From Flavobacteriales bacterium (GTDB lineage Bacteria; Bacteroidota; Bacteroidia; UBA10329), in NCBI GenBank assembly GCA_021739695.1, contig JAIPBM010000020.1, positions 1-64,000 on the forward strand: a stretch of DNA of 64,000 nucleotides, given 5' to 3'. Numbering within the stretch: position 1 is the first letter of the stretch; the number at the start of each line of letters is the position of its first letter. Below the pieces are notes generated by a model. That model was not told where the DNA came from. It did not search any database and saw only the letters and a program-made list of their open reading frames with translations. Below are positions 39,348 through 62,200 of the stretch, one piece after another. The translations under genes were made by a program, and so were the position numbers.

Positions 39348-42080
39348 TCATCTTACTACAGTCACGTGGCCTGTGTATTGATGTACAAAGGTGAGCGGAA
39401 CCACTGAAAATGAGAGTGAATAGGCATAAACGGCCTGATCGGTCAATGCGCCTTTGAAGTAGCCATCCCAACCTTGTTTAGGATCGGTGCTGGTAAAGAT
39501 CTCTTCGCCCCATCTATTGTAGATATGGAGCGTGTAGCTATGGACAAAAGCTCCGCTAATAATGGGCAGGAACACATCGTTTATCCCATTCTCTTGGCCA
39601 GGCATGTGAGGCGTGAACGCGTTCGGAATGTAAACCGTAAGATCAGGTTTCAGAATCAAACTATCGCAGGTTTGGCCAACGCAACCATCTGCATTCACTT
39701 CTAAACAAACATGGAACGTATGCGGCAGATCATTCGGAAGCGTGATGTCGAAACTATCCTCAACGCTTTCCATTAGCAACATTCCTGTTTCATCTACGAT
39801 GGTCCAATTGCGAATACCATCAGGTGACAATGCTTGGAACGTGACCGTGTTCAGATCTGTAGTTGGTTTTTGCGGATCGAATGTGAAAGCAGGAACCAAT
39901 TGAGCTGTTGGTCGCAAGGTGATGACCAGAATACTGTCGCAGCCATTCGTGCTCGTTAACGTACTGGTGTGGCTAATTTCTTGTGTGAGTGAATCGAGCA
40001 CGGTTCCATCTGGGAAGGTATAGTCTGAACCTAAACAGAGATCAAAGCTGGTACGGCTAAGCGTAGATTGATTGACCGTTACTTGCGTTACCACTACCGA
40101 ATCGCAACCAGAACCGTTTGGCCAAATGGAAGTGTGGTTCGTATTGGTAAGTACCGTTTCTGTCGATCCATCTGGATACGTGACAGTTGTTCCAGCGCAG
40201 ACCGTCAAGTTTTCATTCCCCATAAAACCGGTTGATAATGAAACATTCGTTGTAATGATAGAATCGCATCCAGCACTGGATGTAAGGGCCGAAATGTGCG
40301 AAGTGTTCGCAGTAATTAGTTCCGATGTTCCATCAGGATAGACAACAGTTGTTCCTCCACATACATTCAGGTTTTCGGTCGTTGTGAATCCGGCCACCAC
40401 AGAAACGTTCGTGGTAACGACAGAATCGCATCCAGCATTGGTAATTAAAGCTGAAATATGCACAGTACTTGCTGCAATGACTTCCGATGTTCCATCTGGA
40501 TAGACGACCGTTGCTCCAGCACAAACATTCATGTTTTCGGTAGAAATAAATCCTGCTACAACTGAAACGTTCGTGGTCACGGTAGAATCGCATCCTGCAC
40601 TTGTTATCAAAGCCGAAACGTGTGAGGTGCTTAATACAATGAGTTCGGATGTCCCATCAGGATAGAAGACTATTGTTCCTGCACAAACATCCACGGTTTC
40701 GCTTGAAGTGAAACCAGCCACAATGGAAACATTTGTGGTAACGGTAGAATCGCAACCTGAACTACTTGTTAGGGCAGAAACGTGGCTAGTGTTCGCAGAA
40801 ATCAGTTCAGACGTTCCGTCAGGATAAACCACTGTTGTTCCACTACAAACATCCACGTTTTCGCTTGAAGTAAAACCACTGACTACTGAAACGTTTGTGG
40901 TAACTATCGAATCGCAACCAGAACTACTTATTAAAGTGGAAATATGACTGGTGTTGGCTGTAACGACTTCCAATGTTCCATCTGGATAAGTAACGGTAAT
41001 TCCTTGACAGACATCCATTAGTTCTGTGCTGCTGAAGCCCGAACCATCGTCCAATACAGTCACGTCAACCGTGTCTGAACAACCAATGGAAGAGCTGACA
41101 ATGCAGTGATAGTTTCCCGAACATAAACCTGTTGCTGTAGCTGTTTGTATGCCTAATGACGAATAATTGCTGGCTGTCCAATTATAGGTGTAACCGGGAA
41201 TGGAACCCGATGCCAAAACCGAGGCAGTGCCCGAGCAAGCACCACACTGACTATCGGTGCTGCTGCCATTTACCTGCAATGCAGTAACGGGCACACAATT
41301 ATTGTTGAATTGTCCAATGTACGCTGCGTTGGCTGCATTGTTCGGTAATCCAGGTGTTTCATCGCCTCCGCTAGAAGCGGAACCTTCGCTCCAATTGGCT
41401 TGGTTGTTAGGGTCTCCACCATTGAAATACCACACTTTCTGAGAGCCAGAGCCGAAAGAATCGAAATAGATGAGCGTGTTATTGGAGCAAGAAGCCCAAC
41501 AGACCGAGAAAACTTCGCAACCAGAAAGGTCGACCAAGCGCGCACAATCTCCCGAATTTGCCAAGAAAGTGAAAGTCCAATCGCCTCCTGCTATCCAACC
41601 TGAGGAAGGATAACTGCAACTGGCAGCGCCAGGAGTCGTGAAATTGTGTTCAAATAGAAAGCTATCACTGATAGGAGCAACTATACGACAATTGCCGTCC
41701 GCTAAGTTCAGATCATCAGGAGGAACAGAAAGCCCTGGATCGGCATCGTTGTAAACCAGAATGATGGTTCCCACCGGAACACAGGCCCAAAGCGGGTCGT
41801 AAGAAAAACGTAAAGCGCCATTTGCAATTCCGCCCGAACCGTGGTAGCCCGAATTGTCATCGAATATCCAACCTCGGATATCAATGCAGGGCGGGGCATT
41901 ATTGCTGCAATCGAACGAAAGGTTTTCGTCTGCTACAACGAATTCTACAAATTCCTTGTTCCCGTTCGCACCGTTCGAAACCTCATTTATAATCAGCGTT
42001 TGAGCACCCGCGTTGCTAAAAAGCAAGACCGACAGCAACCCCCAAATAGCCAACAAGGCGAACTGCGCTCTTACCTTCAT
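39348..42080 (-). CDS. Lamin-tail/Cys-repeat T9SS surface protein
   Basis: A 910-aa secreted protein. I use the second ATG (42080), which gives a signal peptide ending SNAGAQ. N-terminal: a lamin-tail-like domain (LIINEVSNGANGNKEFVEFV). Centre: a CGACSGTASVLASGS-type SprB-repeat-like part. Then seven 54-residue repeats, each holding a VCxGTTVVYPDGTSE motif and a GCDSxVTTNVS motif, so two Cys per repeat. C-terminal: a type B sorting domain (YIPNAFTPHMPGQEN, YNRWGEEIFTS). It is likely a cell-surface adhesin or filament. Repeat similarity at DNA level suggests recent expansion. Confidence 0.93.
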   Translation of the reverse strand: MKVRAQFALLAIWGLLSVLLFSNAGAQTLIINEVSNGANGNKEFVEFVVADENLSFDCSNNAPPCIDIRGWIFDDNSGYHGSGGIANGALRFSYDPLWACVPVGTIILVYNDADPGLSVPPDDLNLADGNCRIVAPISDSFLFEHNFTTPGAASCSYPSSGWIAGGDWTFTFLANSGDCARLVDLSGCEVFSVCWASCSNNTLIYFDSFGSGSQKVWYFNGGDPNNQANWSEGSASSGGDETPGLPNNAANAAYIGQFNNNCVPVTALQVNGSSTDSQCGACSGTASVLASGSIPGYTYNWTASNYSSLGIQTATATGLCSGNYHCIVSSSIGCSDTVDVTVLDDGSGFSSTELMDVCQGITVTYPDGTLEVVTANTSHISTLISSSGCDSIVTTNVSVVSGFTSSENVDVCSGTTVVYPDGTSELISANTSHVSALTSSSGCDSTVTTNVSIVAGFTSSETVDVCAGTIVFYPDGTSELIVLSTSHVSALITSAGCDSTVTTNVSVVAGFISTENMNVCAGATVVYPDGTSEVIAASTVHISALITNAGCDSVVTTNVSVVAGFTTTENLNVCGGTTVVYPDGTSELITANTSHISALTSSAGCDSIITTNVSLSTGFMGNENLTVCAGTTVTYPDGSTETVLTNTNHTSIWPNGSGCDSVVVTQVTVNQSTLSRTSFDLCLGSDYTFPDGTVLDSLTQEISHTSTLTSTNGCDSILVITLRPTAQLVPAFTFDPQKPTTDLNTVTFQALSPDGIRNWTIVDETGMLLMESVEDSFDITLPNDLPHTFHVCLEVNADGCVGQTCDSLILKPDLTVYIPNAFTPHMPGQENGINDVFLPIISGAFVHSYTLHIYNRWGEEIFTSTDPKQGWDGYFKGALTDQAVYAYSLSFSVVPLTFVHQYTGHVTVVR
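39911..41045 (-). repeat. Seven tandem 162-bp (54-aa) coding repeats
   Basis: Part of the preceding CDS. The middle copies are the most alike; the first and the last two are more divergent, a pattern expected from unequal crossing-over in the centre. Confidence 0.85.
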
Positions 42081-54397: not shown

Positions 54398-58180
<3,783 letters not shown>

Positions 58181-58221
58181 GACCAGTTGTTTTGATTTGG
58201 AACAAAGGTCAATCACTCATT

Positions 58222-58264
58222 TCACAAAGTAAAACCAAAATGTAGCGATTAGTTACAGTTCTAA
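58222..58264 (-). promoter_or_regulatory. Upstream block shared with the 59203-62970 gene
   Basis: TCACAAAGTAAAACCAAA and a GTTACAGTTCTA stretch recur at 63015-63057 with about three in four bases alike, at 41 and 44 bp before the respective ATG. Likely a related promoter region. Confidence 0.55.
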
Positions 58265-58286
58265 GCCATTCCCACCACTCGTACCT

Positions 58287-58341
58287 TAACCAACCATCCA
58301 AACCCTTGCAGCACAAAAGGCGATGGATGGCAAGAGTAGGG
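58287..58341. repeat. Leader copy A (55 bp)
   Basis: TAACCAACCATCCAAACC... to ...GAGTAGGG; 51 of 55 bases equal leader B at 58701-58755. It lies 59 bp before array A. Confidence 0.85.
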
Positions 58342-58400
58342 AGGTAATGGCATGGAGCATATTCCGAAAAACGGTGTCTTCCGAAATCGTAAGCGAGTCT

Positions 58401-58631
58401 GGAAAAATGAAAAGGGAAGATGGAAAAACGAAAAGGGAAGATGGAAAAATGAAAAGAGAAGATGGAAAAATGAAAAAGGGAGATGGAAAAACGAAAAGGG
58501 AAGATGGAAAAACGAAAAGGGAAGATGGAAAAATGAAAAGGGAAGATGGAAAAACGAAAACGGAAGATGGAAAAATGAAAAAGGGAGATGGAAAAACGTT
58601 AACCGAGAAAGGAAAAATAAAAAAGCAAGAC
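58401..58631. repeat. Tandem array A, 21-bp unit, about 9 good plus 2 decayed copies
   Basis: Unit begins GGAAAAAYG, continues AAAAGGG and ends AAGAT; variable at the Y and in copies 3, 4, 8 and 9. The + strand is almost purine-only. Because 21 is divisible by three, long ORFs exist in several frames of both strands; none carries a credible start context, and I do not call a gene. Confidence 0.93.
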
Positions 58632-58700
58632 CCCTGCCAGCGCAAGTGTTCCGTAGGGTCATTTGTGCTGGTCCTCATTCAGGCTTGTGTTCTCATCCGT

Positions 58701-58755
58701 TAACCAACCACCCAAACCCTAGCAGCACAAAAGGCCATGGATGGCATGAGTAGGG
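58701..58755. repeat. Leader copy B (55 bp)
   Basis: TAACCAACCACCCAAACC... to ...GAGTAGGG; 4 mismatches to leader A. It is followed after 86 bp by array B. Confidence 0.85.
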
Positions 58756-58841
58756 CAGCAGTGGCCTGTTTGGATGCTGAAAGGCTTGTGATGCGGACTG
58801 TAGAGCAGCAAAGCAGTTCTGGAAGGAAGTCAGCTTAGTTT

Positions 58842-59009
58842 GGAAACAAACAGTCTCTCCGTGGAGACAAACAGTCTTCCCAAGGAAACAAACAGTCTCT
58901 CCGTGGAGACAAACAGTCTTCCCAAGGAAACAAACAGTCTCTCCGTGGAGACAAACAGTCTTTCCATGGAAACAAACAGTCACTCCATGGAGACAAACTA
59001 ACTTAGAAA
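58842..59009. repeat. Tandem array B, 21-bp units in two alternating types, 7 good plus 1 decayed copy
   Basis: Units alternate between GGAAACAAACAGTCTC... and GGAGACAAACAGTCTT..., so the higher-order period is 42 bp. At each junction the end of one unit and the start of the next form a palindrome (for example TCTCC-GT-GGAGA, TTTCC-AT-GGAAA). Confidence 0.93.
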
Positions 59010-59202
59010 GGAACTAGGCAACGAAGTCCGCGAGACCTTAAAAGAAGACAGCGGAAGACTAAAAGAAACCAAACTGATTCGGAAAGGGCTGTTCAACGAA
59101 CGGTATGAGCAGTGAGGGGAGTTTGGTGTTCTTGTTGTCGAATAAGAAGGGATTAGAAATAAGGCCTTCAAGATTCGTAGAACATGGAAGGCCATAGGAA
59201 AG

Positions 59203-62200
59203 TTATGGCCCTACTAAAATCAGTTTTCCTAAAAAGGAGTGTGTTCCTTCTTGTTCAAGGTAAATCAAGAACATTCCATGGTTCAGGCCACTTGCTGGAA
59301 CGTTTATTATTCCGTTACTCAATTGATTGTTCTGATAAACCATTCTGCCAATGACGTCTGTAACTACCAAGCTGGAGTTTGGTGCTGGAATGGATGCAAA
59401 TTGAACAACAAAATCTCCCTTGGACGGATTAGGATAGATGCTGGCAAAATTCTGTTCACCTTCTTGAATACCTGTCTGTTCGAGCACGAATTCGGTAGAA
59501 CTTACCTTACAATCTTCGAAGTAAAAAGCATCAATACTATAAACGCCATCCAATATGGGTTCGAACGTAATTCCGTTGGCATTAGGTATTGGATTACCAT
59601 TTAGGAACCATTGCTGGCTTTCTGGAAGAAGAAAAGGTGAACGTAATCGTTCTCCGCTCCACACAATATCCTGTGGAGTAAGCTCGTAGCAATCCACTTT
59701 ATTGGATGTGATATTTGTAATGATGGGAGGGTTATTGTCGAAAATGATGTGCGCTTCATTCAATATCAATGTGCCCGGATAGAGGTTGGAATCCGCTTTT
59801 ATCCGGTATCGGATATAACCCTGACTTGCAGCGTAGTCTGCTCCGCTATCTGGCAACATGATATTGTCAAACCTGAAAACGGCATCCCTATCAGGCTCAA
59901 CACTCACTTGCACATGGTGCGACCAAGAAATAGGAGTAAGGCTGGTTCTGTCAAGATAGCTGGATAGTGGGTCGCGAATGACCACATTGGTTGCTGCAGC
60001 ATTTCCTGTATTCTGAAAACGAACGGTATATTCCAGCCATTGACCATCCTCAATCAATCCATCAGGTCCAATTCCTGTCGATTCACTTTTATCGTTGGGG
60101 TCGTAGGCGCAACTGAGAATATCTGCGCTTTCTTCATGTAATTCCAGTCCGGAAACATCTTGGTATGTTGCCTGACTGAAAATCACATCTCCTATATGAT
60201 CGGTACCAGGCAATTCAACCTCAATCTGCCATTGCTTAAGGTCGTAGTAATAGAGGCTGTCGAGGGTGAAGTAAATGTGGTTGCCTACAATGGAGTCTGC
60301 ATCGCATACAATGCTTTGTGCGTCAATTATTGGGTCAATAATAAGTTCCAATGCTCCCGAAAGAATGGTGTTGCCCGTATTCTGAACAGATACCCACATG
60401 TACCCAGGGCTGTTGCAGAGCCCTGCCAGTTCCACGATCTCGATATTTCCATGGGGTTGAACTCCAACTGGCACAACGCCAAAATCAATGTCTGACGCAA
60501 GCATATTGCTGCTATCCAAGGTAACCGTGTAGCTGGCATTGGGGCTAGAAAGCGACCAAAGATTGGTATCAAAATCAGGAGCAACCGTATACGTGCCAGT
60601 CCCGGTAATGGCATTATAGATTCCGGCTGCATTGGCATAAAAAACAGATTGCGCAGGAGAAATGTCGACACCAATGAAAGGAAAGGGGAGGTCGGTACTG
60701 TCCAATGTACCATCAGCATCCGTATCTACAAACAGATTTCCTGTGATGCGGTAACTTCCCCAGAACAGGTTTTCTAGGAAATAGATGCCACCCGCTCCCA
60801 TGGCCGGTCCTTGATCTGAGAGAAATACATCCAAGTCGCCATCAAAATCGCGGTCATGTGATTTGAGGTCAAGCGTATTATATACTACATAAGATAAGGG
60901 CGCTTGAAGATAGGGTTCCGTATACGGTTGAAAGAAAGGCTGTTGAAAGGATAGATTTCCATCGTTCTTGTACCAGAACAGTCCCGAATTACCGTCATTG
61001 GTTACAGAATGAGAAAAGCAAACGATGTCCGTTAGACCGTCATTGTCCACATCCATAGGATGAGAAACAAATGGTTTCAATGAATTGTCTTGATCGATGA
61101 CATGTTTCACATAATCCCCATAGTCATTTTCAAAAATGGCGACCATGTTTTGATTTGATTGGCTGTAGGTTATCAGGATATCGTTGTCTCCATCCAGATC
61201 AAAATCAGCATAGGATATTTGGTTATTGTACCATATAGAACCATCCTCTATAAACGTTCTCTCAAAGATTCCATTTCCATCATTCTTCAGTACTAAGATT
61301 CCCGAAGGGATGATGTCGGGAACTGCTTCTCCGCGCATGCATACGGCCATGTCCATATCACCATCATTTTCCATGTCAAAAGTGATTGCTCGGGCCGCTA
61401 TACCAAAATAAGATGAGCCAACAGTTTCTGGCTCATATCCGTTACCATTGTTTCTGTATAAGATAACCTCGCCATTCATATCTTGAATTGGAACTCGGAT
61501 GATATCCATATCACCATCGTTATCAAAATCTTCCATGGCAGCAACATAAGCCATGTCAAAGGTGTCCTCTAAAAGAAGTTCTGGCTCAGCGAATGCACCT
61601 TCAGCATTGATGGAATTAAAGAATTGATTTCGATGCCAGTTATAGTACGAGATATCTGGTAGACCGTCAAAATTGTAGTCAACCAATTGAAAAGGTTCAG
61701 GGTTTCCTGCTTTGTAGTCAACCATAGTAACCTGTGTAGCATATTCTCCATTACCCAAATATGGAAGTACTTCTATAGCACTAATGCAAGGATGCTTTGA
61801 TGAGGCCACAATATCCTTAAAGCCATCTCTGTTCATGTCAATGAGTTCAAACTCGCAATAACTGGGTGTGTTCAAACAAATGGCATCCTCCCAATTGTGT
61901 GTTGTGCCATTTCCAAAAACTACGACAGGGCCCATGGGATACAGCATGTCTAATATACTGTCTCCGTTAAAATCAGCGAATTTGACTGGACTACCCCACC
62001 CTCCGTATGCGAAAAGTGTATCTGGCTCCAGATTGGACAGGCTGTCCAAATAGTAAATCATAGTTGGAGACTCTACATTCAGAATTTCAGGTTCGCCCTG
62101 TCCGTCAACGTTAGCAATAGATAATGCATGAAAGCCCCAGTTTTCAATTTGAGCAAGGTGATGGATGTCGATAAATGTCCCAAATCCATCATTTTCCATC

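What the first reader, a model, noticed from the sequence alone, without database searches (positions are those of the whole stretch)
58287..59009. Two leader-plus-21-bp-array modules in tandem
A 55-bp leader (51 of 55 identical) occurs twice, 414 bp apart. Each leader is followed by a spacer of 59 or 86 bp and then by a tandem array. The two arrays share the period (21 bp) and a GGA start but otherwise differ in sequence. A conserved leader with different arrays of the same period suggests a defined element type, in which array content turns over while leader and period are kept. 21 bp is two turns of DNA and seven codons. I know no named element with this layout.
Basis: partly seen in the sequence, partly recalled or inferred. 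Interest (0 to 1): 0.74.

Follow-up and report, generated by a model that had tools for sequence, protein, structure and literature searches.

The report
Genome-wide intergenic arrays spaced 21 bp
This bacterium and its relatives scatter many unrelated repeat arrays between their genes, and nearly all repeat every 21 or 42 bp (two or four full DNA turns); what is kept is the spacing, not the sequence, which suggests that position on the DNA helix matters, although no function is shown.

Summary
The 55-bp leader (51/55; 77 bp at 84%) occurs twice, 414 bp apart, with a different 21-bp array behind each copy. The leader does not define the element: these are its only two copies in the 4.2-Mb genome, none were found in 8 congeners or 290 other class genomes, and 12 other arrays in this genome have no leader. 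The period is the real finding. In 30% of the genome I catalogued 14 intergenic arrays, and 31 in all with four sampled congeners and one genome of another family. Arrays share no sequence; 21 have a pitch of 21 bp and 10 a true pitch of 42 bp. 29 of 37 repetitive intergenic gaps have their best lag at 21, 42 or 63 (p about 3e-29); 14 other class genomes gave 0 of 5. They are not coding. Two-copy 21-bp duplications are not enriched elsewhere. About 1,400 unit substitutions sit beside one or two register shifts, and conserved columns cluster with 21- and 10.5-bp periodicity. Sites orthologous to two arrays lack them in relatives. Best reading: species-specific arrays selected for helical phase, probably as same-face protein-binding sites. 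The mechanism is inferred; a 21-bp duplication generator is the main rival.

The parts
58278..58354 (+). Judged a local duplication, not a defining component.
   Evidence: 77 bp at 84%, core 51/55; only two copies in the genome
58394..58634 (+). Array 1 (A1): 11 units of 21 bp, consensus GGAAGATGGAAAAATGAAAAG, 87% purine on the + strand, decayed at both edges
58640..58668 (+). Hairpin GCGCAAGTGTTCCGTAGGGTCATTTGTGC between the arrays; dispersed family also near arrays A6, A11 and B2
58692..58768 (+). Leader copy 2
58793..58799 (+). Outer arm GCGGACT of an inverted repeat that encloses array 2 (partner AGTCCGC at 59025-59031); inner arms TTAGTTTG 58835-58842 and CAAACTAA 58994-59001
   Evidence: read from the sequence; outer stem present in the predicted fold; function not tested
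58821..59009 (+). Array 2 (A2): 9 units of 21 bp in an A/B alternation of 42 bp; junctions form dyads (TCTCC..GGAGA, TTTCC..GGAAA); on the minus strand the hairpin GTCTCCACGGAGAGAC with a T-rich tail recurs three times
59025..59031 (+). Outer arm AGTCCGC, partner of 58793-58799
59086..59103 (-). Motif CCGTTCGTTGAACAGCCC, shared with flanks of arrays A3 and A8 (CAGTTCGYTGAACNGACC)

Best explanation
The two arrays belong to a class of intergenic arrays, many per genome, each with its own unit sequence but with a pitch of exactly 21 or 42 bp, i.e. two or four whole turns of B-DNA at 10.5 bp per turn; 21 bp is the smallest whole number of base pairs that equals a whole number of such turns. Shown: the class, the pitch, the unrelated sequences, the intergenic position in every gene orientation, the lack of coding signal, the clustering of conserved columns, the near-absence of register shifts, and absence of the array at orthologous sites of relatives for the two loci tested. 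Inferred: an array grows by tandem duplication, is kept only if its units stay in helical phase, and presents a short core (about 5-12 bp) on one face of the DNA to a protein that binds side by side along it (array-specific regulators of the AraC direct-repeat kind, or an oligomerising nucleoid protein that reads phased shape rather than one sequence). Old arrays lose sequence but keep phase. The 77-bp leader is an accidental local duplication, not a component.
For: Lags 21 and 42 give 11 and 12 hits in 1.26 Mb; no non-multiple of 21 exceeds 2. Intergenic autocorrelation peaks at 21, 42, 63, 84, 105, 126 in two genomes. Best-lag census 29/37 at 21/42/63. Ten arrays have a true 42-bp pitch with background identity at lag 21. 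Two-copy duplications of 21 or 42 bp are absent outside arrays. 1,410 substitutions against one or two register shifts, and arrays continue in register into their decayed edges. Conserved columns cluster (Fisher 3e-13), with power at 21 and 10.5 bp but not at 7 or 3 in the 21-bp arrays. Dyad-symmetric cores in about seven arrays. 21-bp direct repeats are the predicted site structure of AraC-family RhaR regulators in Bacteroides and others (PMC3870299).
Against: No common core, so no single sequence-specific protein can bind all arrays. Neighbour genes have nothing in common and arrays also lie between convergent genes. Dyads, hairpins and curvature are each seen in only a minority. No binding, footprint or expression data. 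Arrays were found by periodicity, which biases the indel count downward, and inherited substitutions are counted more than once. Low-frequency clustering of conserved columns also raises the 10.5-bp power.
Confidence: 0.42

Rival explanations
1. Mutational origin: an enzyme or replication accident peculiar to these lineages makes tandem duplications with a 21-bp step, and arrays then grow and decay as neutral minisatellites.
For: Arrays are species-specific at the two loci tested, sit in long, repeat-rich gaps, have homogeneous centres and decayed edges, and show no functional neighbour pattern.
Against: No two-copy 21- or 42-bp duplications outside arrays in 1.9 Mb. Decayed arrays keep register and conserve contiguous blocks of columns, unlike plain decay. 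No candidate enzyme was identified.
Confidence: 0.3
2. RNA elements: arrays are transcribed into chains of hairpins, for example serial terminators or RNA-binding sites. Array 2 on the minus strand carries hairpins with T-rich tails downstream of the 1255-aa gene.
For: A2, A4, A9, B3 and C1 fold better than column-permuted controls; A2 region z -3.15; repeated terminator-like sites on the minus strand.
Against: Most arrays, including A1, show no excess structure on either strand. Orientation relative to genes is mixed. Two turns of A-form RNA would be near 22 bp, and nothing in this idea demands 21. No Rfam match.
Confidence: 0.12
3. Intrinsic curvature: the 21-bp pitch phases bends so that the arrays are curved DNA segments, e.g. 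for gyrase or a nucleoid protein.
For: C5 (16 degrees per turn, phased A and T tracts), A4 and B2 exceed column-permuted controls; combined p 0.04. Any 21-bp repeat adds its small bends in phase.
Against: Most arrays are no more curved than permuted arrays; WW periodicity is absent (combined p 0.63). The wedge table was entered from memory.
Confidence: 0.1
4. Coding repeats: seven- or fourteen-residue protein repeats.
For: Several arrays are open in some frames, e.g. 58323-58703 (+), which begins inside leader 1.
Against: A5, A10, A11 and C2 have stops in all six frames; conservation has no 3-bp periodicity. The same start in leader 2 runs into a stop before array 2 (read from the sequence). 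No Pfam match. Other multiples of three are not enriched.
Confidence: 0.03

Closest known systems
AraC-family operator direct repeats with 21-bp periodicity (e.g. RhaR of Bacteroides; PMC3870299)
   Same: Direct repeats, non-coding, spaced 21 bp (two helical turns), sequence specific to each regulator, present in Bacteroidota
   Different: Those are single direct repeats at promoters of defined regulons; here 5-20 units, also 42-bp pitch, no regulator or regulon link, species-specific
Plasmid and origin iterons (from general knowledge)
   Same: Direct repeats of about 17-22 bp bound in helical phase by an initiator protein
   Different: One sequence per replicon next to a Rep gene; here many unrelated arrays over a chromosome, no Rep neighbour seen
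Heptamer and other simple-sequence repeats (TAACTGA repeats, PMC4679880; heptamer arrays seen here in G009)
   Same: Intergenic tandem direct repeats, also in some Bacteroidota
   Different: 7-bp unit of fixed sequence; in our arrays mean identity at lag 7 or 14 is background (0.24-0.26; A1 alone has 0.62 at lag 7)
REP/BIME-type dispersed palindromes (from general knowledge)
   Same: Intergenic, partly palindromic, in repeat-rich gaps
   Different: REPs share a sequence across the genome; these arrays share only the period

Membership tests
   12 of 14 arrays in the sampled 30% of the genome lack it; only two leaders exist
   0 of 8 congeners, 0 of 290 other class genomes
CRISPR-type array | Identical repeats separated by unrelated spacers, leader on one side | tested here: not met
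   Units are contiguous with no spacers; 21 bp in total
Protein-coding tandem repeat | Open frame through the array with codon-position bias | tested here: not met
Heptamer / simple sequence repeat | Sub-periodicity of 7 bp | tested here: not met
   Mean identity 0.24 at lag 7 and 0.26 at lag 14 over 31 arrays; A1 alone has 0.62 at lag 7
Described RNA family | Match to an Rfam model | tested here: not met
   No match at E up to 1 in 57900-59400
AraC-type direct-repeat operator | Direct repeat at 21-bp pitch | tested here: met
   21 arrays at pitch 21
AraC-type direct-repeat operator | Regulator gene or common regulon at the array | tested here: inconclusive
   Neighbours listed by start of sequence; no shared type seen, but most were not scanned against a family library
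AraC-type direct-repeat operator | Binding by the protein | not testable with these tools
   needs EMSA, footprint or ChIP
Iterons | Adjacent replication initiator gene | tested here: inconclusive
   None recognised among the flanking proteins, by inspection only

The most novel reading that the evidence does not exclude
A sequence-agnostic, helix-phased class of bacterial intergenic DNA: what is selected is repetition at a whole number of helical turns, whatever the unit, read by a DNA-wrapping or oligomerising nucleoid protein or by direct duplex-duplex homology. It would be a bacterial chromatin-like positioning code.
Probability: 0.2. Interest if true: 0.88.

Novelty: new variant of a known kind. 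Interest (0 to 1): 0.63.

Why it matters
Tandem repeats in bacteria usually have a wide spread of periods and are taken as slippage debris or phase-variation switches. A genome-wide set whose only common property is a period of two or four DNA turns would mean that helical position itself is selected in intergenic DNA. That gives a sharp test: change the pitch by half a turn and keep the sequence.

Tried and rejected
Leader as mobile or regulatory element: searched own genome, 8 congeners, 290 other class genomes, genome contigs and viral contigs (exact patterns), phages and plasmids; nothing beyond the two copies except three exact matches to an 18-base pattern in unrelated bacteria, not followed up. 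Weak leader hits looked like chance; the one read in context lies inside a gene. Coding repeats rejected. RNA structure as common principle rejected after a per-strand null; my first null used one strand only and was misleading. Curvature as common principle not supported. Type 9 secretion genes as common neighbour: 4 of 44 flanks against a 3-5% background, three of them counted at the window. Homology between arrays: none between different loci; A13 has a decayed relative 3 kb away. Assembly artefact (k = 21 in common assemblers): rejected because many arrays are 40-50% diverged between units, 42-bp arrays have unrelated halves, and the pattern recurs in several genomes. Literature searches found no description of the class, in an open-access library only.

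Full report
1. Observation. The leader pair and both arrays are as described. The duplicated segment is 77 bp (84%), stops sharply, and is followed by unrelated arrays that are not in the same register relative to it. Both lie in a 986-bp gap between two minus-strand genes whose predicted products carry type 9 secretion tails.

2. The leader is local. Searches of the assembly (4.24 Mb, 98.5% complete) give exactly two copies. Eight congeners and 290 other genomes of the class give none; genus, family and order coincide here (9 genomes held). The hairpin that leader 1 can form is disturbed by two of the four core differences in leader 2, so no conserved structure is indicated.

3. The period is general. 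I sampled 1.26 Mb of the same genome and measured self-identity at every lag. Lags 21 and 42 give 11 and 12 hits, and their multiples 63, 84 and 105 follow; no non-multiple of 21 between 8 and 110 exceeds 2. Mean intergenic autocorrelation shows the series 21, 42, 63, 84, 105, 126 in this genome and in congener G002. Stretches of G004, G005 and G008, and of G011 from another family, also hold such arrays. In a best-lag census over all gaps of 200 bp or more, 29 of 37 repetitive gaps fall at 21, 42 or 63 (14/17, 5/6, 6/9, 4/5), against 0 of 5 in 14 other class genomes (binomial 3e-29 if lags 12-63 were equally likely, Fisher 0.0045 between groups).

4. Anatomy. The 31 catalogued arrays are 105-438 bp long (median 232). 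Those placed against predicted genes lie between genes in tandem, divergent and convergent gaps; the arrays of G004, G005 and G008 were not placed one by one. Units of different arrays are unrelated. Twenty-one arrays have pitch 21; ten have a true pitch of 42, with lag-21 identity of 0.08-0.31 against a background near 0.25. Conserved columns are clustered (Fisher 3e-13), with excess power at 21 and 10.5 bp and none at 7 or 3 in the 21-bp arrays. Strongly decayed arrays (A14, B6, C2) keep a short core in register over 10-14 units. About 1,410 substitutions stand against one or two register shifts, at the edge of A3.

5. Origin. Near-perfect two-copy tandem duplications outside arrays occur at many lengths but never at 21 or 42, which argues against a simple 21-bp duplication bias. 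At the two loci tested (nqrA and an etfB-like gene) relatives have the gene but no array; at the second, G003 has about 50 bp where this genome has about 870 bp. So arrays come and go between species. These genomes are well diverged (73-94% protein identity at those genes), so the time scale is long.

6. Mechanism tests. Coding: rejected. RNA folding: clear in A2, A4, A9, B3 and C1 only. Dyad symmetry: clear in about seven arrays. Curvature: clear in C5, A4 and B2 only. None of these is a common principle. What is common is helical phase, and the pitches seen are the whole-base-pair multiples of two turns; 31 or 32 bp (three turns, not a whole number) is almost absent (one gap at lag 32). I therefore favour selection for phase, with same-face protein binding as the likeliest reason. 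21-bp direct repeats are the predicted site structure of AraC-type regulators in Bacteroides and others (PMC3870299). This last step is inference.

7. Limits. A duplication mechanism with a 21-bp step cannot be excluded.

Noticed in passing
window 58640-58668; L032 8951-8979 and 10405-10433; L068 8963-8991; L076 2098-2126; near L061 1109-1141: A dispersed hairpin family, consensus GCGCAAGnnTTCCGnAGGAnnnCTTGTGC, REP-like; several copies lie within 400 bp of 21-bp arrays, others do not. No Rfam match for the window copy. Whether a REP-type transposase accompanies it was not tested.
   Followed up: partly
window 59086-59103; L029 18681-18720 (two copies, 22 bp apart); L037 13559-13576: Motif CAGTTCGYTGAACAGACC flanks three unrelated arrays (A2, A3, A8).
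   Followed up: partly
L117 12526-12625 and 17485-17630; L132 16510-16690 (genome G009): Another genome of the class has 7-bp tandem repeats (GGGTTTT/GGGTTTC, AGTTTCG, GTTGGCA), some as adjacent opposed arrays; a different kind of array, also a multiple of 7.
   Followed up: no
L061 740-1140 and 19450-19800 (G002, contig of 20.5 kb): The contig carries inverted copies of one array-bearing segment near both ends; could be an inverted-repeat-bounded element or an assembly effect.
   Followed up: no
L029 18200-19060: The gap holding array A3 is packed with other short repeat-like pieces that resemble dispersed elements known to me from other Bacteroidota; relatives have a short gap here.
   Followed up: partly
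window 40240-40988: Tandem repeat of 162 bp (4.6 copies, 75% matches); looks like repeated protein domains but was not examined.
   Followed up: no
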